A stretch of DNA of 64,000 nt, taken from assembly GCA_017618215.1 (NCBI GenBank), contig JAFZUQ010000008.1:124001-188000 (forward strand), written 5' to 3'. The DNA is from Elusimicrobiaceae bacterium. GTDB lineage: Bacteria; Elusimicrobiota; Elusimicrobia; Elusimicrobiales; Elusimicrobiaceae. The notes beneath the pieces are model-generated. The model did not search any database, was not told the DNA's origin, and was given only the letters and a program-made list of their open reading frames with translations. Position 1 is the first letter of the stretch, and every line of letters starts with the position of its first letter. A program made the translations under genes and the position numbers. Positions 34,698-47,214 of the stretch are shown piece after piece.

Positions 34698-37600
34698 ATG
34701 AAAAAATTTTTATTTTACTTTTTAATTTTAGCCCTTTTGGTTCTGCCTGCTTTTGCGGCAAACCAAACCCAAACTACAAAACAAAATGATATTGAGCAAA
34801 CCATAACTTTAATAAACCAACACAAATATGATGCAGCACTTAAATTGATATATTCCGTAAAAGTTCCGTCTAATAAAGAAGAAAGAGCGCTTTACTATCT
34901 TGCCAAAATTAAAGCGCTTGAAAGCACCCCTTACTATGCAAATGATTTAGTTGAAAGCAAAACCGATCCTACCAAATTTACAGATAAACAAAAACAAGAT
35001 GCCATAAAGCAGTCTTATAAAGAACTTTGGAATTTACGCACGACACTCGTTAATATGCCTTATCAAGAAAATAAAAAATATTTGGGTTATGGTTATTTTC
35101 AAATTGAGCCGGAAAGTTTGTACGATGCTCTAGTAAATACCTTTATAAACAGGCAGATAGAAACGGAAACTAAAATTTTGGAAGAATCATATAAATTAGG
35201 CGGTAAAAACCGCGATGGTATACGTGAATATTGGCATATACAATATATAAATGCAGAAATTGAAAAACAGAAAACACGAACATCACTTGAATTATATAAA
35301 GAACAGCAAAAAGATTTAGCAGAACTTTTTGCCACAATTTCCGGTTACAATAAAGATTATAACGGTAAATATAAACAATACTTTTTTGAAGCGAAAACTT
35401 TGCGCGGTAAATATGAGGCTGCTTTACAAAGTGCTCAATCTTATCAACAAGCAGAACAATTTTATAAAGCCCATGAAGTTGCCGAATATTGCGCACCTTT
35501 TGAAATAAAAAATAATGCTTGTGTTTTATTAAAAAAGGAAATTGAAAATCCAAGCGCTTATATAACAAACAATGTTCCTCATACTTATAAACCAAATACA
35601 TCTTTGCCAATTAAATTTAAGGCAAATAACTTAAAACAAATAATTTTTAAACTTTATAAATTTTCTTTAAAGCAAACACAAAATGGGGTTGGAGATTTTA
35701 AAAACATTAAACCTTATAAAACTTATACTCAAAATTTAACTTATGATAAGCCTTATACACCTAAAGAATTTGATTTTGAATTACCGAGTTTAGAACGAGG
35801 TTTTTATTATTTAACTCTTAATTATGGAGAGAAAGGATTAGATTCTCGTCATTTACGCATTACCGATTTGGCACTTTTGGCTACAAGCTATTTAAATACA
35901 GATAATTTACAAACCTTAAATTATAAAGATACAAGTGTAAATTTTTATACGCTTTCCGCACATAACGGGCAACCTCTTGTGGCAAGCATTTCGGGTGAGA
36001 AATTGAGCATGGTTCAAACAAATCAATCCGGCCAGGTAAATATAAAAGGAACAGATACTTTACGCAATATCGTGGCTAAATATAAGGATAATTATGCTTT
36101 AATAAATTATCTGTATCCGCAACATTATAGCGTCTCAAATCCAATATCAATTTATATAAATACTGACAGATCAATCTATAAACCTAGCGAGGAAGTAAAA
36201 ATTGTTTTCAATGTAATGGAAAATAAAGATAATAAACATTTTACTTATCAAGGGCAGGATAAATTAGATATTATAATACGTAATGCCTCTTATAAAGAAA
36301 TTGCAAAAGATACTTTAACCCTTGATAGTTTTGGCCAAGCAGTTTATACCTTTAAAGTCCCGCAAGATACAATGCTTGGTAATTTCAACATTAACGCACA
36401 TATTAACAAAGGTAACGGTTATGGTAGTTTCCAAGTGGAAGAATTTAAGCAGCCGGAATTTACTTTAAATTTAAATCAGCCCGATACTGTTTACGGCTTT
36501 AACGAAGACATCACTATTGACGGTAAAGCCGCCTATTATTCCGGCGAGGTTTTGGCAAATGCCAAAGTTAATGTCGTAATAAATAAACAACCTTTTTACC
36601 CTTGCTGTTACAGATGGGATAATTTTGAGTTTGAAAACGAAGACCCCGTTTATATGGAAATGTTGACGGATAAAGACGGTAATTTTAAAATAACCTTTAC
36701 ACCGAAAGCTAAAAAAGAAAAGAAAGTTTTACCTGCTCATTATTTAATTAAAGCGGAAGTTACCGGCAGTAACGGGCATACAATTAAAGGCGAAACAAGT
36801 TTGTATGTCGCAAATCAAAAATACTTTTTTGGCATTGAAAAAGTAAAAGGATTTTTTTTAAATGATACTGAAAATACCTTGACTTTAAAAATGCAAAATG
36901 CCGCCGGTAAACCGCAAAAAGGCAAAGCAACGTTTAAAGTCTTTGAAGCAAAACTTAAAGACAGTAAAAAGATTTCTTATTATCAAGAAAATTATGACTT
37001 GTCTAAAGAACCTATTTTTAGTAAAGAAGTAGAGTTCAGCGGTAATGAAATTACCCAAAAACTCCCTGCTCTAAAAGAAGGTTTTTACGGAGCTAAACTA
37101 AGTGCCTACGGTGATGAAAGCGAAGCGTTTATCTTCCCTGTGTTTAACAGCAAAAACCCTAATTTGGCAGTGGAAGGCAGTGTAACTTTACTTGAAAATA
37201 AAAAATATATTGTGGGTGAAAATGCAAAAATTTTACTTGGTGCAAACAAGGCAAAAGGTCCGAAATTTGTGGAAATTTATAAAAATGGTTTCTTTGTAAA
37301 ACGTATGAAATTATCTAATCAACCCTTGCAAATTTTAACTTTACCAATTTTGCCTGAATATCAAGGCGGTATAAGTTTACGCTGGCTCGGTGTGTATGAC
37401 TATGTAAGTTTCGAAGGAACACTTAATATAGAAGTCCCGTATTTGGGCAAAGATGTTGATGTAAAACTTAATGCACCGGAAAATTTAGAACCCGGCAAAA
37501 AAGCCGAACTTAATTTGATGGCAACTGTAGATAAAAAACCTTTACAAAATGCCCGTGCCATGCTTACTGTTTATGATAAAGCGCTTGATTATTACAGACC

Positions 37601-40139
37601 TCATAATTTCAGTTTACCGTCATTTTATGGGCAAAATTTTAATAGTGGCAGTATTACAAGTTCTTTGCAATCAAACGGCGCTATTTATTTAGGAGAAACG
37701 GCAAATTTCAGTGCTAGAGGGGGCAGGGGTGCCATATCAGAAATGAAATCTATTAGTTTTGCTGCTTCTTTTGACGGTGCTGCTATGGAAGAGAGCATTT
37801 CAGCAGCACCAAGGCTTGCAAAATCTAAAAATGCTATAGTGCAAGATATGGATACGGTACAAAACACCGAAAATAATGGTGTCCGTACAGATTTTGCACC
37901 GACCGCATATTTTAACCCGGGGGCAGATTTGAAAAACGGTAAAACCGCTTTCAATTTCAAAATGCCCGATAGTTTAACGGAGTGGACTGCCGCCGCAATA
38001 GTTTTCAGTAAAACTTTGCAAATCGGCAAAACACAAGTTAATTTTAAAACGCGTAAAGAATTAACCTTGCGCCTTGAAACACCCACATTCTTGCGCCAGG
38101 ATGATAAAATCGTCATAAAAACTTTAGCAAAAAATAATACTAAAAAAACTTTGCAAGGCGAGGTTTCTTTAACCCTTAATGTAAACGGTGAAACGGCGGA
38201 AAATAGTTTCAAACCGCAACAAATTTCCTTAAAGGCAGGGGAAGAAAAAACTCTTACTTGGCCCTACACCACCCCTAAAGATCTTGGGGAAATTACTGTT
38301 ACCGCGGCCATCCGCTCCGGCCAAATTATTGACGGCGAAACAAGAACTTTACCGCTTTTAACAAGCCTTCAATATCTGCCAAACAGCAAAACAATTGCGT
38401 TAAAAGAGGGGGCAAATTCCTTGCAACTTGCGCCCGTTAAAGAGGGGGAAATTTTAAGTGCCGCGCATTTAACTTTGGATACTTCTTTGCTCGTGCCTGT
38501 AATATCTGCAATGCCCTTGCTTAGTGAGCAAACTTTTAAAACAATTACCGGCACTATTGACCGCTATTTGCCGCTTGCAATAATTAATGAACTTTACACG
38601 AAATACCCTGATTTCAAAAAAGCAGCCAAGCAAATTGAGCGCAAAACCAGAACAGAAGAATGGAATAAGCAAACTTCTGAAATTTTATTGAAAGATATGG
38701 AACTCTCACCTTGGTATAACCTTTCAAAAGGTGGGTGTGAAGCTGATAATTTAATAAATATTTTTGATGCCGCAACCGTTGCCAAAAAACAAAAGAATTA
38801 TGAAGAAGACCTTAAAAAATATCAAAATTCAGATGGCGGTTTTACTTGGATAAAAGGCGGCAAGAGCAGTTTATATATTACACTTTATGTCGTAGACCGC
38901 TTAGCGCAGGCTTCATACTTTGGTGTTAAACCGCCGATGACAGTTACACAAAATGCTTTAAAATATCTGCATCAAAAATATAAAGAGTTTGATTTTTCAA
39001 AACCCTATTACCCGTTTGAAGCGATATATTATGCTTATGTAATAAGTGCTTTTGATAAAACTTTACTTGTTCAAGATACACGCAAAAAAGTACAAACGTT
39101 AGCTGATTATATTGATAAACAAAAGGAAATTTTAGCACCTCTCGGACAAGTTTACATGGCAGTTATTTACCATCGTTTAGGCAATCCGCAAAAAGCCAAA
39201 AAGTATATTAATAAACTTTTTGAAACCGCCAAAGAAAATGATATTACCGGCACAAGTTTTGCTATGGAAGAACGCTCTTGGCAGTGGTTTAATGACGGCC
39301 TTAATTTGCATGCTGAGGCCTTACGCATGTTGCTTGAAATTGAGCCAAATAGCCCGCGTATTGATGGCCTTATAAAGTGGATTATGTTTAACAAGAAAGC
39401 GACGATGTGGGGCAGTACAACCAATGCCGCAAAGGCGGTGTATGCCTTGCTTGATGCAATAAAATCCTGGGATATTTTAGGGCAAAATAAACATTATGAT
39501 ATTGCTTGGAACGGGCAAAATTATAACCTTGATTTTGGCCCATTTGCAAAGGAAAGTAAGACGGTGTTTAGCGTGTATGCGCCACAGGCAAATAATGAAA
39601 GTTTGAAAGCGACAATAACACAAAATACAACTGTGGCACAGGGCAAAAAAGCCCAAAAAACTTTGCCGAGTTTTGCAACTTTAAGCAATCTTATTATCAG
39701 CAATTTGCCGCAGGAAGCAAGCCCGAAAGGTGTTTTAAATATTACAAAGAATTATTATTTAATAGAAGGTAACACCGTCAGGCCATTAAAAGAAAATGAG
39801 GAAATCAAAGTCGGTTCCAAAATACAAGTGCGTTTAACTGTTAAAGCGGAACATAACTTTGATTTTGTGATGATTCAAGATCGTAAACCTGCCGCTTTTG
39901 ACACGGAAAAATTGCTTTCCGGTTGGGTGTGGGACGGTTTATCACGTTATGAAGATTTGCAACTTGCACAAACTAATTTCTTTATGGATTATGTGCCTGT
40001 CGGTACTTATGAACTTAAATACATTTTACGTCCGACGGCGGAAGGTGTATTTAATGTCGGAGCAAGCGTGATGCAGAGCATGTTTGCGCCGGAAATTTCC
40101 GCACATAGCAACAGCTTTATAATTAAAGTTGTAAAGTAA
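34698..40139 (+). CDS. Alpha-2-macroglobulin-like protein lacking the thioester cysteine
   Basis: 1813 residues, the largest gene in the window. Signal peptide 1-20 (FYFLILALLVLPAFA), no lipobox. A helical, Lys/Tyr-rich N-terminal 280 residues are followed by macroglobulin domains (MG2 around 490, IYINTDRSIYKPSEEVKIVF), a flexible Gly/Ser/Ala-rich segment near 1000-1060 that could be the bait region, the A2M domain (SLTEWTAAAIVFS, near 1100) and the thioester-domain helical toroid (about 1260-1570). The canonical CxEQ is L1275-S-E-Q, so no covalent trapping by thioester. It is similar in that respect to E. coli YfaS. No pbpC partner adjacent. Probably periplasmic protease-trapping or envelope-protection protein. 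Confidence 0.9.
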   Translation: MKKFLFYFLILALLVLPAFAANQTQTTKQNDIEQTITLINQHKYDAALKLIYSVKVPSNKEERALYYLAKIKALESTPYYANDLVESKTDPTKFTDKQKQDAIKQSYKELWNLRTTLVNMPYQENKKYLGYGYFQIEPESLYDALVNTFINRQIETETKILEESYKLGGKNRDGIREYWHIQYINAEIEKQKTRTSLELYKEQQKDLAELFATISGYNKDYNGKYKQYFFEAKTLRGKYEAALQSAQSYQQAEQFYKAHEVAEYCAPFEIKNNACVLLKKEIENPSAYITNNVPHTYKPNTSLPIKFKANNLKQIIFKLYKFSLKQTQNGVGDFKNIKPYKTYTQNLTYDKPYTPKEFDFELPSLERGFYYLTLNYGEKGLDSRHLRITDLALLATSYLNTDNLQTLNYKDTSVNFYTLSAHNGQPLVASISGEKLSMVQTNQSGQVNIKGTDTLRNIVAKYKDNYALINYLYPQHYSVSNPISIYINTDRSIYKPSEEVKIVFNVMENKDNKHFTYQGQDKLDIIIRNASYKEIAKDTLTLDSFGQAVYTFKVPQDTMLGNFNINAHINKGNGYGSFQVEEFKQPEFTLNLNQPDTVYGFNEDITIDGKAAYYSGEVLANAKVNVVINKQPFYPCCYRWDNFEFENEDPVYMEMLTDKDGNFKITFTPKAKKEKKVLPAHYLIKAEVTGSNGHTIKGETSLYVANQKYFFGIEKVKGFFLNDTENTLTLKMQNAAGKPQKGKATFKVFEAKLKDSKKISYYQENYDLSKEPIFSKEVEFSGNEITQKLPALKEGFYGAKLSAYGDESEAFIFPVFNSKNPNLAVEGSVTLLENKKYIVGENAKILLGANKAKGPKFVEIYKNGFFVKRMKLSNQPLQILTLPILPEYQGGISLRWLGVYDYVSFEGTLNIEVPYLGKDVDVKLNAPENLEPGKKAELNLMATVDKKPLQNARAMLTVYDKALDYYRPHNFSLPSFYGQNFNSGSITSSLQSNGAIYLGETANFSARGGRGAISEMKSISFAASFDGAAMEESISAAPRLAKSKNAIVQDMDTVQNTENNGVRTDFAPTAYFNPGADLKNGKTAFNFKMPDSLTEWTAAAIVFSKTLQIGKTQVNFKTRKELTLRLETPTFLRQDDKIVIKTLAKNNTKKTLQGEVSLTLNVNGETAENSFKPQQISLKAGEEKTLTWPYTTPKDLGEITVTAAIRSGQIIDGETRTLPLLTSLQYLPNSKTIALKEGANSLQLAPVKEGEILSAAHLTLDTSLLVPVISAMPLLSEQTFKTITGTIDRYLPLAIINELYTKYPDFKKAAKQIERKTRTEEWNKQTSEILLKDMELSPWYNLSKGGCEADNLINIFDAATVAKKQKNYEEDLKKYQNSDGGFTWIKGGKSSLYITLYVVDRLAQASYFGVKPPMTVTQNALKYLHQKYKEFDFSKPYYPFEAIYYAYVISAFDKTLLVQDTRKKVQTLADYIDKQKEILAPLGQVYMAVIYHRLGNPQKAKKYINKLFETAKENDITGTSFAMEERSWQWFNDGLNLHAEALRMLLEIEPNSPRIDGLIKWIMFNKKATMWGSTTNAAKAVYALLDAIKSWDILGQNKHYDIAWNGQNYNLDFGPFAKESKTVFSVYAPQANNESLKATITQNTTVAQGKKAQKTLPSFATLSNLIISNLPQEASPKGVLNITKNYYLIEGNTVRPLKENEEIKVGSKIQVRLTVKAEHNFDFVMIQDRKPAAFDTEKLLSGWVWDGLSRYEDLQLAQTNFFMDYVPVGTYELKYILRPTAEGVFNVGASVMQSMFAPEISAHSNSFIIKVVK

Positions 40140-41935: not shown

Positions 41936-43282
41936 TTATAACTTTACCGATAAACTATATAGATCTTCAAGTTGTTCGACTTTAACTTTGGGTGTTTCTT
42001 TTAAAATCGGTGTAAAAATTTCCTTCATGCCAAGGCGCGCGGCTTCTTTGATGCGGCGCTCGGTTAAAGGTACAGGTGCAACTTGCCCCAAAATTCCCAC
42101 TTCACCGATAAATGCGGAAGTGCCGGAAATCGGTTTGTCTTTAACTGAGCTTATCACAGCGGCACAAATTGCAAGGTCAAGTGACGGATCATTAATTTTT
42201 GTACCGCCTGTTAGAGAAATATAGACATCTTTATTATCTAAATTTAAACCGATATGTTTTTCAAGCGCGGCAAGCAGCATTTGGCAGCGGTTTAAATCAA
42301 GCCCTGTTGCTATTCGGCGTGGGTATGGGAAATGCGTTACCGAAGTTAAAACTTGAACTTCAGTTAAAATCGGGCGCGTACCTTCAAGCGCGATAGAAAA
42401 GGCCCTGCCTATAATTTTTTTACTGCGCGAAGTTTGCGCAAAATATGCGCTTGCATCTAAAACATCTTCAAGTCCGGTTGCTGTCATTTTAAATAATGCA
42501 ATTTCAGAAGTTGAACCGAAGCGGTTTTTGTGTGCGCGCAGTATGCGCAAAATATTATCGGAATCGCTGTCAAAATATAAGACGGTATCAACCATGTGCT
42601 CCAAAACTTTTGGGCCGGCAAGGGCGCCGTCTTTGGTAACATGGCCCAAAATAAAAGTTATTATTCCGCTTGGTTTTGTGGCACGTAAAATTTCGCCTGC
42701 ACTTTCACGCACTTGGCTTAAAGTGCCGGATGCTGAGTTAAATTCCGGATGATAAACCGTTTGTATTGAGTCTATTATCAAAACTTGCGGTGCAACTTTT
42801 TTTATGGCTTCCAAAATGCGCTGAATATTTGTTTCAGAGAGTAAAAAAATATTTTCCCCGTCGGCTTTCAAGCGTTTTGCGCGGGATGCAATTTGCTCCA
42901 AAGATTCTTCACCTGAAATGTATAAAACTTTTTTGTTTTTTGATAAAGCAGATGCAATTTGAAGCATCAAAGTGCTTTTACCGATACCGGGTGCACCGGC
43001 AAGCAAAGTTATTTGCCCGTCAACAAGCCCGCCGGAAGTTAAGCGGTCAAATTCCGATATACCTGTTGCGGTGCGTTTTTCTTCTTTTGCGCTGGCGTCT
43101 TTGAGGGGGGTAATTTCTGAAGAAAATTCTGTAAAAGATTTTTTAGTTTTTGCCGTTTTTGATTCTTCTTGTATAACTTCTTCGGCAAAGCTATTCCACT
43201 CCCCGCAATCAGGGCAACGCCCCAGCCATTTTGGAGAGTTAAAACCGCATTTTTGACAAGTATAAATAGTTTTAAATTTCAT
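41936..43282 (-). CDS. radA: DNA repair protein RadA
   Basis: 448-residue RecA-like ATPase that helps process recombination intermediates. N-terminal four-cysteine zinc finger (CQKCGFNSPKWLGRCPDC), Walker A GAPGIGKST, the RadA signature KNRFGS, and a C-terminal Lon-protease-like domain (DPSLDLAICAAVISS). Full length. It lies between mlaD (9 nt upstream) and nadE. Confidence 0.96.
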   Translation of the reverse strand: MKFKTIYTCQKCGFNSPKWLGRCPDCGEWNSFAEEVIQEESKTAKTKKSFTEFSSEITPLKDASAKEEKRTATGISEFDRLTSGGLVDGQITLLAGAPGIGKSTLMLQIASALSKNKKVLYISGEESLEQIASRAKRLKADGENIFLLSETNIQRILEAIKKVAPQVLIIDSIQTVYHPEFNSASGTLSQVRESAGEILRATKPSGIITFILGHVTKDGALAGPKVLEHMVDTVLYFDSDSDNILRILRAHKNRFGSTSEIALFKMTATGLEDVLDASAYFAQTSRSKKIIGRAFSIALEGTRPILTEVQVLTSVTHFPYPRRIATGLDLNRCQMLLAALEKHIGLNLDNKDVYISLTGGTKINDPSLDLAICAAVISSVKDKPISGTSAFIGEVGILGQVAPVPLTERRIKEAARLGMKEIFTPILKETPKVKVEQLEDLYSLSVKL

Positions 43283-43291
43283 AAATACCTA

Positions 43292-44569
43292 CTAATTTGC
43301 CATTCTTGCCAAGCCAAGCAAGGAGGCAAGTTCTTTATCTTCAAACGATAAGTTAGCACCGATTTGTAAGGCAGAGGCCTCCGCAATATCATTATACCTT
43401 ACATTGAAACCTACATTCTTATTAATCCATGCTTGTGCACCGAGTGCATAGAAAGGTTTGTCAAACATACGGCCGTTAATTACGCGTTTGCGACCAAAGT
43501 CAGTTGCCTCCCCATATAAGGCAAAGTTTTTAACAATAAAGTTATTTGCTTTGTAGAAAGGTTTAACTGCTGCACGTACACCGCCTGAACCGCGAATCAT
43601 ACCCACTGCCAAATCACCCCATTGATTGTATACGCCGAGGCGTACATCAATTTGGTTGAAATCCCTGAAATCTTTATCATTCTTTGGCATATTATCTTTA
43701 TTGCCCAAATTAGCAACACCCGCGCTATAATATGTATAGCCGTTACCGGGCACGAATTTAACAAACAAATCGGAAGAACCAAGCCTACCGTTTGGTTGAT
43801 AATAAGCATCATAAAGCCAGAAAATTCTGAATTTAGCCATTTGACCTACAAATTGTTTTGCATCATCCGAAACTTGTTTGATATTTGCCAAAGTTTGCTC
43901 TACATCCTGTCTCATTTTTTCATCAGAAACCAAAGCAGGGAACAAACCTTTACCTGTTTGTAAATCTTGCATAACTTCATTTGAAGCTTTTGTAAGCTCG
44001 CTGACTTCCTGCATAGATTTTGTTAAATAAGGCCTTAAGGAAAAGATTAAATCATTTAAGTTGCCGGAAAGATTACGCAAATTCTCAAGTGCAGCATTTA
44101 AATCTTCAGCAAATTTGCCATTGTCATTTATGCCGCCTGTAAGGTTTTGTATGGAGTTTAAAGCATCGGTAATCATATTTGTAATCGAAGGTAGACTCAT
44201 ACCTGTTACATGGGAACCCGGCTCTAAAATACCGCTTTGTGGGTTGCCCTGTTCAATTTGCAAATAATTTGTACCAATTAAACTTGTGGCTGCTATCGCA
44301 AATTTTGAATTTTTATAAATTATTACACCTTCATTTATTTTAAGGAGTGCTAAAATTTCACCGCCTTCAATTTTTAATTCTTTAACTTTACCGACTTCAA
44401 CACCGTTTAAGCGGACATTTGATTTTGCCGGTAAACCGGAAACATCAGTAAAGTGTACCGTAATATCATAACCTTTTGTTATGGAAAAACTACCCAAGGC
44501 AAAAATACAAAGCCCCAGTAGAACTAAACCTATAAAAGTAAATAAACCGACTTTTGTTTCTGTACTCAT
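43292..44569 (-). CDS. mlaD: MCE-domain protein MlaD with helical stalk and C-terminal beta-barrel-like domain
   Basis: 425 residues against about 180 for E. coli MlaD. Residues 7-29 are a transmembrane helix, 34-118 an MCE domain (YDITVHFTDVSGLPAKSNVRLNGV in segments, SLIGTNYLQIEQG), 120-245 a helical stretch (ITNMITDALNSIQNLTGG, LENLRNLSGNLNDLIFSLRP), and 246-415 alternating beta-strand-like segments rich in Tyr/Gly/Asn (FRIFWLYDAYYQ, YTYYSAGVANLGN, ALGAQAWINKNVGFNVRYND). The protein could span from the inner to the outer membrane by itself. No mlaA, mlaB or mlaC is adjacent. Fused MCE-helix-barrel MlaD proteins are known from Veillonella. Confidence 0.88.
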   Translation of the reverse strand: MSTETKVGLFTFIGLVLLGLCIFALGSFSITKGYDITVHFTDVSGLPAKSNVRLNGVEVGKVKELKIEGGEILALLKINEGVIIYKNSKFAIAATSLIGTNYLQIEQGNPQSGILEPGSHVTGMSLPSITNMITDALNSIQNLTGGINDNGKFAEDLNAALENLRNLSGNLNDLIFSLRPYLTKSMQEVSELTKASNEVMQDLQTGKGLFPALVSDEKMRQDVEQTLANIKQVSDDAKQFVGQMAKFRIFWLYDAYYQPNGRLGSSDLFVKFVPGNGYTYYSAGVANLGNKDNMPKNDKDFRDFNQIDVRLGVYNQWGDLAVGMIRGSGGVRAAVKPFYKANNFIVKNFALYGEATDFGRKRVINGRMFDKPFYALGAQAWINKNVGFNVRYNDIAEASALQIGANLSFEDKELASLLGLARMAN

Positions 44570-44579
44570 AAATACCTCT

Positions 44580-45338
44580 TTAATTTGAGATTTTCATTTG
44601 TATCGGCCCGTTTGCCGAACCTTCTATAAATTGTTTAACATAAGGGTTTTGTGTACGTTTAAATTCCTCTTTTGGTGCCGCAAGCTGCACTTTGCCCTCA
44701 TAAAGCATGGCAAGAGTGTCTGAAATTTCAAAGGCACTTTTCATGTCATGCGTAATAACTATTGATGTTACATCAAGTTTTTTCTTCAAATCTAAAATTA
44801 ATTGGCTGATGATTTCAGACATTATCGGGTCAAGCCCGCTGGTCGGTTCATCATATAGAATTACTTTTGGATTGGTTGCCAAAACACGTGCTAGGGAAAC
44901 ACGCTTTTTCATACCTCCAGAAAGTTCCGAAGGCCTTAAATGTTCAATATCTTTTAAGCCGACAAGCGCAAGTTTTTCTTTTGCTATTTTTGCATATTCG
45001 CTTTTTGGTGTATCAGTTAAATATTTTAAACCAAAAGTTACATTTTCACCCACGGTTAAGGAGTCAAATAAAGCACCCTCTTGGAATAAATACCCAAAGT
45101 TTTTGCGAAGTTTTGCAAGCTGAAATTCATTGTTTATATGTGTAATATCTTTACCATCAACGAGTATTTTGCCGCCATCCGGTTCAAGCAGGCGGATAAT
45201 GCATTTAATTAAGGTGCTTTTACCTGTACCGGAACCGCCGATAATAGTGGTAACTTCGCCGTTTTTAATTTCCAAATTGACGCCGTTTAAAATATGTTTC
45301 GGGCCAAAATGTTTTTGTAAGTTTTCTATCTTAATCAT
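44580..45338 (-). CDS. mlaF: Phospholipid ABC transporter ATP-binding protein MlaF
   Basis: 252-residue ABC ATPase that powers MlaE. Walker A GGSGTGKST, signature LSGGMKKRVSLARV, Walker B VILYDEPTSGLDP, switch His in VITHDM. The ATG at 45338 lies 1 nt after the mlaE stop; an upstream TTG at 45350 would overlap mlaE. The order mlaE-mlaF-mlaD is a complete inner-membrane core. Confidence 0.95.
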   Translation of the reverse strand: MIKIENLQKHFGPKHILNGVNLEIKNGEVTTIIGGSGTGKSTLIKCIIRLLEPDGGKILVDGKDITHINNEFQLAKLRKNFGYLFQEGALFDSLTVGENVTFGLKYLTDTPKSEYAKIAKEKLALVGLKDIEHLRPSELSGGMKKRVSLARVLATNPKVILYDEPTSGLDPIMSEIISQLILDLKKKLDVTSIVITHDMKSAFEISDTLAMLYEGKVQLAAPKEEFKRTQNPYVKQFIEGSANGPIQMKISN

Positions 45339-45339
45339 A

Positions 45340-46116
45340 CTATACCCCAAAAGCGTGTAAAATCGCTGTTAAGAAGTAGTCAATAACCAAAATCATTACC
45401 ATGCTGACGACCACAGCACCTGTTGTCGCTTTACCGACACCTTCCGCACCGCCCCTCGTATTAAGCCCTTTATAGCAGCAAATTACACCGATAGTAAAAG
45501 CAAAAACCGTTGCTTTTATAAGGCCGTGCATTAAATCATCTACACCTAAATAAGTTGTGATATCATTTGTATAAGTGCTTGACGGTACCCCTAAACCTTC
45601 AACACTTACTATAAAACCGCCGAAAATACCCATTATGTCTGAAAATATTGTTAGTATCGGTATAGATACGGTAAAAGCAATTAAACGCGGAATAACTAAA
45701 TATCTTATCGCATTTGTACCGAGTGTGCTTAAAGCATCAATTTGCTCTGTAACTTTCATAGTGCCGATTTCTGCTGTAACGGCAGCACCCGCGCGGCCTG
45801 CTATAACAAAAGCAGTTAACACCGGCCCAAGTTCGCGTACTAAGGAAAAACTAACAAGCAAACCTATGTAAAGAGGTTCGCTTAAAATATTTTGCATAGT
45901 GTTACCTGCCTGCAAAGCAAGTACCATGCCGACGAATAAACCCGTCATCAAAATAACAGGCACACTTTCAACACCGATTTTTACTATTTGTTGCAGAGTT
46001 TGATTAACTTCAAGAGGGCTTTTACGGAACCAAAAAAAAGCATCTTTAATCATTTCGGTAGCTTGGCCGAATTGAGTAAAAAAGAAAATTAAAAATTTCC
46101 CCGTCTTTTTAAACAT
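45340..46116 (-). CDS. mlaE: Phospholipid ABC transporter permease MlaE
   Basis: 258 residues, polytopic (about five to six helices). Family motifs: MTGLFVGMVLALQAG, ELGPVLTAFVIAGRAGAAVTAEIGTMKVTEQIDAL in overlapping segments, then PRLIAFTVSIPIL. The core channel for moving phospholipid between membranes. It starts right at the alr stop (TAA ATG, no gap). Confidence 0.95.
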   Translation of the reverse strand: MFKKTGKFLIFFFTQFGQATEMIKDAFFWFRKSPLEVNQTLQQIVKIGVESVPVILMTGLFVGMVLALQAGNTMQNILSEPLYIGLLVSFSLVRELGPVLTAFVIAGRAGAAVTAEIGTMKVTEQIDALSTLGTNAIRYLVIPRLIAFTVSIPILTIFSDIMGIFGGFIVSVEGLGVPSSTYTNDITTYLGVDDLMHGLIKATVFAFTIGVICCYKGLNTRGGAEGVGKATTGAVVVSMVMILVIDYFLTAILHAFGV

Positions 46117-47214
46117 TTAAACCCCTATACGCGGAACACGGCGCGCAATAGATGTTAATATTTCATAATCAATAGTTCCGCACTTTTCGGCAAGTTCCGA
46201 AGCAGGCAAATTTTTGCCAATTAATGTCACTTCGGTGCCGATTTTAATATCGCCAAGTTCGGTAATATCAACCATCATCATATCCATAGTGATATTACCC
46301 ACTTGCGGGCAACGTTTACCCAAAATTTCCACTTCCGCTTTATTTGATAAAGCGCGAGGGTAACCGTCACCATACCCTATAGGTATAGTAGCAATTTTTG
46401 AAGGTCTTTTGGTAATAAATGTTCTTTGATAACCGACAGACACATTTTCCCTGATATCTTTAATAAACACGACTTTAGATTTTAAGGAAAGGACAGGTTC
46501 AAAACCCGGTTCTAAACCATAGGCAAGATGCCCAAGGCGCACCATATCAAATTGTGCTTGCGGATAGTTTAAAAATGCTTGTGATGCAGATAAATGATTC
46601 AAGCCGGTATTTAAATTTTGTGCTTTTGCTTCTTCTAAAAGTTCTGTAAAATAATTGAACTGTTGTTTGGAATATTCAGTATCATCAGCTTTAGCAAAAT
46701 GGCTGAAAGTTCCTTGCACTTCCACAAAAGGCGCAATATTTAAAATTTTTAGTATTTCTATTGCTGCCGGCCTGCGCGAACCTATGCGGTTCATACCTGT
46801 TTCGTGTTTAACATGTGCGTATGCTTTTATTTTTAATTTAGCTGAAAGTTCTGCCAAAAATTTTGCCGCTCTGACACTAGCTATTGCCACAGATAATTGA
46901 TTTTTGATGGCATATTCAAAACACTCAAAAGGCCAAATACTGCCAAGTACCAAAATAGGTAATGTTATCCCTTTTTGGCGAAGTTCTATGCCTTCCTCTA
47001 TTGAGGCAACACCTAAAAAATCAGCAAGTTTATTGTCTTGTACATATTTGGAAATAAGCCCGGCATCATGCCCGTAAGCATTTGCTTTTGCAAGTAATAA
47101 GATTTTTGTATTTTCTTGCCCTCTTTGTGCGATTAAATCTTTAGCCTTTAAAAGATTATTCTTTAAAGCATTTAAATTTATTTCCGCAACTGTAGGGCGA
47201 AGAATTGGCATCAT
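46117..47214 (-). CDS. alr: Alanine racemase
   Basis: 365-residue PLP enzyme that makes D-alanine for peptidoglycan. PLP lysine in LLAKANAYGHDAG near residue 43, catalytic tyrosine region near VGYQRTF, and IPIGYGDGYPR in the C-terminal beta domain. Two adjacent ATGs (47214 and 47211) overlap the dnaB TGA, so translation is coupled to dnaB. Confidence 0.95.
   Translation of the reverse strand: MMPILRPTVAEINLNALKNNLLKAKDLIAQRGQENTKILLLAKANAYGHDAGLISKYVQDNKLADFLGVASIEEGIELRQKGITLPILVLGSIWPFECFEYAIKNQLSVAIASVRAAKFLAELSAKLKIKAYAHVKHETGMNRIGSRRPAAIEILKILNIAPFVEVQGTFSHFAKADDTEYSKQQFNYFTELLEEAKAQNLNTGLNHLSASQAFLNYPQAQFDMVRLGHLAYGLEPGFEPVLSLKSKVVFIKDIRENVSVGYQRTFITKRPSKIATIPIGYGDGYPRALSNKAEVEILGKRCPQVGNITMDMMMVDITELGDIKIGTEVTLIGKNLPASELAEKCGTIDYEILTSIARRVPRIGV

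What the first reader, a model, noticed from the sequence alone, without database searches (positions are those of the whole stretch)
43292..44569. MlaD carries its own stalk and outer-membrane-like barrel: a one-protein lipid bridge
The protein has TM helix, MCE domain, about 125 helical residues and then about 170 residues of beta-strand pattern, all in 425 residues. The operon has only mlaE, mlaF and mlaD, with no mlaA, mlaB or mlaC. A fused MlaD of this kind with a minimal MlaEFD operon is known from Veillonella. Its presence here suggests an ancestral trans-envelope form in another diderm phylum.
Basis: partly seen in the sequence, partly recalled or inferred. Interest (0 to 1): 0.65.

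Follow-up and report, generated by a model that had tools for sequence, protein, structure and literature searches.

The report
One-protein lipid bridge in Elusimicrobiota
A gut bacterium of the phylum Elusimicrobiota carries a three-gene lipid transporter whose MlaD protein seems to reach from inner to outer membrane on its own, as proposed for Veillonella; nearly the whole phylum keeps it at one conserved chromosomal site, and some members have replaced it there with a different, shuttle-type lipid system.

Summary
The 425-aa protein at 43292-44569 (-) has a TM helix, an MCE domain (PF02470, 1.1e-17), an amphipathic helical stalk and a C-terminal domain of ten beta strands. It is last in a tight mlaE-mlaF-mlaD unit. 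This Elusimicrobiaceae genome (92.8% complete) has no other MCE protein, no MlaA and no MlaC; LpxC and Omp85 are present. The barrel domain matches no Pfam or PDB sequence. Three results support it: strict in/out alternation across the phylum, coevolution of neighbouring antiparallel strands (p about 3e-4), and a domain model (pLDDT 65) whose structural matches are almost all outer-membrane barrels. Barrel closure is only weakly supported; OM insertion and lipid transport are untested.

This is the Veillonella-type long MlaD of Grasekamp 2023, not a new kind. New here: 308 of 341 genomes of the phylum match; 221 of 231 aligned sequences keep the barrel; the locus dnaB-alr-mlaEFD-radA is conserved; one lineage is barrel-less there. 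In genomes lacking MlaD, an mlaA-mlaC-MMPL(RND) cassette appears, in four of them exactly between alr and radA. That in-place exchange suggests that bridge and shuttle do the same job.

The parts
43292..44569 (-). mlaD, long form, 425 aa
   Evidence: PF02470 E 1.1e-17
44489..44563 (-). N-terminal inner-membrane TM helix, residues 3-27
   Evidence: helix in model; hydrophobic sequence
44246..44476 (-). MCE/MlaD domain, residues 32-108
   Evidence: Pfam
43835..44185 (-). helical periplasmic stalk, residues 129-245, with a conserved break near 206-216
   Evidence: helices; helical moment at 100 degrees, permutation p 1e-4 for 152-205
43340..43834 (-). ten-stranded predicted outer-membrane barrel, residues 246-410
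   Evidence: alternation p 5e-5, strand coevolution p 3e-4, AF2 domain model pLDDT 65, Foldseek to OM barrels
43295..43339 (-). C-terminal tail after the last strand (DKELASLLGLA...), short helix, conserved
   Evidence: conservation, helix
44580..45338 (-). mlaF-like ABC ATPase, 252 aa from the ATG at 45338
   Evidence: PF00005 2.7e-37; MlaF model NF008809 1.8e-55, below its cut-off
45340..46116 (-). mlaE permease, 258 aa
   Evidence: PF02405 3.7e-80; TIGR00056 over cut-off
46117..47214 (-). alr, conserved upstream neighbour of the cluster
   Evidence: conserved order
41936..43282 (-). radA, conserved downstream neighbour

Best explanation
mlaEFD is a minimal glycerophospholipid trafficking system. 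MlaD is anchored in the inner membrane by its TM helix, where its MCE domains ring the MlaE-MlaF ABC transporter, probably as a hexamer. The amphipathic helical stalks bundle into a conduit across the periplasm. The C-terminal ten-stranded domains insert in the outer membrane and dock the conduit there, so no MlaA lipoprotein and no MlaC shuttle is needed. MlaF ATP hydrolysis moves lipid between the membranes, most likely from outer to inner (retrograde), keeping the LPS-bearing outer membrane asymmetric. Shown: domain order, operon, absence of MlaA/C, conservation, ten antiparallel strands with barrel-like faces. Inferred: hexamer, OM insertion, conduit, substrate, direction.
For: Domains and operon; single MCE protein, no MlaA/MlaC, LpxC and Omp85 present. 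Strand faces: one 75% hydrophobic with 8% charge, the other 26% with 34% charge and conserved Gly, permutation p 5e-5. Neighbouring antiparallel strand ladders coevolve more than other strand pairs, p 3e-4, confirmed with model-derived strands, p 2.5e-4. Model with ten long strands; nearly all of the 50 listed PDB matches are membrane barrels, best E 1.5e-4. An even strand number places the stalk and C-terminus on the same, periplasmic, side, with several short turns there. Same architecture, length (419 aa), ten strands and minimal operon as V. parvula MlaD, where the separate domains fractionate to inner and outer membranes and mutants suggest retrograde lipid traffic (PMC10665443). In-place exchange with mlaA-mlaC-MMPL in MlaD-lacking relatives.
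Against: The barrel region has no sequence match to any solved or curated barrel. The full-length AF2 model failed there; the domain model is moderate, only one of five models was good, and TM-scores to PDB barrels are low, mostly 0.2-0.4. Closure S1-S10 ranks only 4th-7th of 36 strand pairs. Families f16-f18 keep the locus without a barrel, so the barrel is not indispensable. TamB, the antagonist in Veillonella, was not found in this genome.
Confidence: 0.7

Rival explanations
1. The C-terminal domain is a periplasmic beta domain that touches the outer membrane, peptidoglycan or a porin without inserting; the protein is a long MCE tube ending below the OM, like barrel-less long MlaD.
For: No sequence match to known barrels; weak closure; barrel-less versions exist at the same locus.
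Against: One face of the strands is nearly free of charge while the other carries conserved charges and glycines; structural matches are almost all membrane barrels.
Confidence: 0.15
2. The system imports exogenous lipids or sterols from the gut or host, as Mce systems do in mycobacteria, rather than recycling the cell's own phospholipids.
For: TIGR00996 Mce-family similarity, below cut-off; the profile aligns with an Mce1 chain over residues 5-244; many relatives are host-associated (inference).
Against: Kept as a housekeeping cluster across about 90% of the phylum, larger genomes included; exchange with an MlaA/MlaC system.
Confidence: 0.12
3. The direction is anterograde: MlaEFD exports phospholipid to the outer membrane, perhaps standing in for TamB, which was not found in this genome.
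For: No TamB by PF04357; the exchanged MMPL protein is related to RND-type lipid exporters, below cut-offs.
Against: V. parvula mla mutants accumulate PE in OM vesicles, consistent with retrograde traffic (PMC10665443); the genome is incomplete and other AsmA-like proteins were not searched.
Confidence: 0.15

Closest known systems
Veillonella parvula MlaEFD with transenvelope MlaD (Grasekamp 2023, PMC10665443)
   Same: TM-MCE-long helix-ten-stranded C-terminal domain, 419 vs 425 aa, mlaEFD only, no MlaA/MlaC
   Different: Different phylum and locus (dnaB-alr-mlaEFD-radA here; tolC-tamB there); TamB not found here; sequences not compared because the Veillonella sequence was out of reach
E. coli MlaFEDB-MlaC-MlaA
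   Same: MlaE, an MlaF-like ATPase and an MCE protein in one cluster
   Different: MlaD 183 aa without stalk or barrel; shuttle and OM lipoprotein present; window MlaD misses the TIGR04430 cut-off (67.8 of 135 bits)
Mycobacterial Mce1 (8fed)
   Same: MCE domain plus long helical stalk; profile aligns over residues 5-244
   Different: Heterohexamer; each chain gives one strand to a shared barrel (stated in PMC10665443); no ten-stranded domain per chain

Membership tests
MCE/MlaD family (PF02470) | MCE domain above the curated cut-off | tested here: met
   64.5 bits vs 25.1
Veillonella-type long transenvelope MlaD | N-terminal TM helix, MCE, then a long helical region | tested here: met
[quoted passage not shown]
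Veillonella-type long transenvelope MlaD | Closed barrel inserted in the outer membrane | tested here: inconclusive
   closure weak; matches are OM barrels but TM-scores are low; insertion needs fractionation
Veillonella-type long transenvelope MlaD | mlaEFD cluster, no MlaA or MlaC in the genome | tested here: met
   genome 92.8% complete; MlaB checked only in the cluster
Veillonella-type long transenvelope MlaD | Barrel homologous in sequence to V. parvula MlaD | not tested
Veillonella-type long transenvelope MlaD | Hexamer and retrograde lipid transport | not testable with these tools
   needs biochemistry
E. coli-type MlaD (TIGR04430) | equivalog cut-off 135 bits | tested here: not met
   67.8 bits
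E. coli-type six-part Mla system | MlaA and MlaC present | tested here: not met
HpnM/HpnN hopanoid cassette (for the mlaA-mlaC-MMPL cassette of relatives) | TIGR03481 and TIGR03480 cut-offs | tested here: not met
   82.8 of 160.1 and 84.1 of 751.85 bits

The most novel reading that the evidence does not exclude
Within one phylum, a trans-envelope MlaEFD bridge has been replaced in place, between alr and radA, by an MlaA-MlaC-MMPL (RND-type) shuttle cassette: two unrelated engines for the same inter-membrane lipid task, one ATP-driven and one presumably proton-driven.
Probability: 0.5. Interest if true: 0.65.

Novelty: new member of a known kind. Interest (0 to 1): 0.48.

Why it matters
It extends the barrel-bearing long MlaD to nearly all of a diderm phylum that the 2023 paper's main text does not name, supporting the view that the E. 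coli Mla system is the exception. The in-place exchange with mlaA-mlaC-MMPL gives a natural comparison of bridge against shuttle and a candidate alternative lipid route for diderms without MlaD.

Tried and rejected
Full-length AF2 with 6 sequences: C-terminal pLDDT about 25, uninformative. Only sequences allowed by the predictor's stated rule were sent; loci from the genome search were not used for it. C-terminal profile against PDB and members against Pfam: nothing credible. Plasmid tblastn: only MCE/stalk-level matches. First pseudolikelihood script timed out; a faster one worked. An early alignment script gave one row because of a truncated table and was redone. Paper searches for a described MlaA-MlaC-RND/HpnN cassette found none.

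Full report
The observation. The ORF at 43292-44569 (-) encodes 425 aa with an MCE domain at residues 32-108 (PF02470, E 1.1e-17). Directly upstream are an MlaF-like ATPase (44580-45338 from its likely ATG) and MlaE (45340-46116, PF02405 3.7e-80). alr abuts mlaE, and radA starts 9 bases after mlaD.

The host. The genome is 1.34 Mb in 19 contigs, 92.8% complete. Named close relatives are uncultured Elusimicrobium / Elusimicrobiaceae MAGs at 90-94% protein identity. It has one MCE protein, no MlaC, no MlaA, LpxC and Omp85, so it very likely has an LPS-bearing outer membrane. TamB was not found with PF04357. MlaB was not searched genome-wide.

Is the C-terminal domain an outer-membrane barrel? 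It has no credible match in Pfam or among PDB sequences. I collected phylum-wide sequences and tested ten strands that I had marked by eye on the window sequence before the coevolution run. On 221 aligned sequences the two faces of the strands differ strongly: 75% against 26% hydrophobic and 8% against 34% charged, permutation p 5e-5; the polar face holds conserved Arg, Asp, Glu and Gly. Because the strands were chosen from a member of the same family, that p value overstates independence. Coevolution (mean-field plus pseudolikelihood couplings, effective number about 116) did not enter that choice: the sequential antiparallel pairs plus S1-S10 outscore the other strand pairs, p 3.1e-4, ring-order permutation p 2.5e-4. 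Strands taken from the later model give p 2.5e-4. The S4-S5 pair is weak, S1-S9 scores unexpectedly high, and closure S1-S10 ranks 7th or 4th of 36, so closure is suggested and not proven.

Models. The full-length model failed in this region. The domain alone, with 6 sequences, gave pLDDT 65 and pTM 0.56 with ten long strands and a C-terminal helix, but only the best of five models was good. Foldseek against the PDB returned almost only outer-membrane barrels or designed transmembrane barrels (OmpA, NspA, OmpX, Ail, OmpG; best E 1.5e-4), with low TM-scores. Topology fits: ten strands return the chain to the side of the stalk. In the window the last strand reads QIGANLSF, which resembles the BAM C-terminal signal (own knowledge); across the phylum only the last aromatic is well conserved.

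The stalk. Hydrophobic periodicity peaks at 100 degrees in all three helices. The two helical segments either side of the break (129-205 and 217-245, about 77 and 29 residues) would span roughly 115 and 43 Angstrom (own arithmetic at 1.5 Angstrom per residue), enough with the MCE ring to cross most of a typical periplasm. A hexameric conduit is inferred from other MCE proteins.

Distribution. The full-length profile matches 308 of 341 genomes of the phylum, 186 of 192 good ones. 221 of 231 distinct aligned sequences hold the barrel region. The order dnaB-alr-mlaE-mlaF-mlaD-radA recurs across families. MlaA was found in 2 of 199 and MlaC in 4 of 199 sampled genomes. Families f16-f18 have 272-302 aa MlaD at the same locus, with no barrel; on a tree of residues 1-245 they need one change (support 79/0) and sit among barrel-bearing families on the midpoint-rooted tree, which favours one loss, though the root is not known. 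Several small Endomicrobium-like genomes (0.4-0.9 Mb) lack MlaD, as expected of reduced endosymbionts (lifestyle is inference).

In-place exchange. Genomes G121, G330, G223 and G233 (family f8) lack MlaD and carry mlaA-mlaC-MMPL between alr and radA, exactly where the others have mlaEFD; G277 shows MMPL next to radA at a contig edge. G237, G278 and G219 also lack MlaD and carry the cassette, without alr or radA nearby. G287 of the same family keeps mlaEFD at the site. G204 has both mlaEFD at the site and mlaA-MMPL elsewhere. MlaA and MlaC assignments are by Pfam for G121 and by similarity to it elsewhere. The MlaC is nearer to HpnM and the MMPL protein to HAE3/HpnN, all below cut-off. These genomes were picked for lacking MlaD, the MlaA count of 2 in 199 shows the cassette is rare overall or undersampled, and I had no searches left to confirm that they lack MlaE as well. 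The cassette's mechanism and substrate are inference. No paper in the library was found that describes it.

Comparison with the known. Grasekamp 2023 (PMC10665443) describes a 419 aa V. parvula MlaD with TM, MCE, about 150 helical residues and a ten-stranded barrel, an mlaEFD-only operon, inner/outer-membrane fractionation of its parts, and wide distribution of long MlaD. Its main text never names Elusimicrobia; its supplement could not be read. The window protein works like that one and meets its testable features, so it is a new member of a known kind. The exchange with mlaA-mlaC-MMPL is the part I consider new.

Noticed in passing
L091 3061-11121; L290; L291; L292: In MlaD-lacking genomes an mlaA-mlaC-MMPL cassette sits between alr and radA, the site of mlaEFD elsewhere.
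   Followed up: partly
L098 6937-7845; L099 6510-7325; L100: Families f16-f18 have barrel-less 271-302 aa MlaD at the same locus, often with a second MCE protein in the genome.
   Followed up: partly
L077 5449-8298: A second, separate mlaE-mlaF-MCE cluster in G045 encodes a 386-aa MCE protein without the barrel pattern.
   Followed up: no
G124, G130, G137, G139, G142, G163, G173; G150, G184, G190: Small Endomicrobium-like genomes lack MlaD, and some others show it in several fragments, suggesting decay in reduced genomes.
   Followed up: no
window 34698-40139: 1813-aa secreted protein that looks like a bacterial alpha-2-macroglobulin; not tested.
   Followed up: no
whole genome G000: No TamB by PF04357 although LpxC and Omp85 are present; the anterograde lipid route is unidentified.
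   Followed up: no
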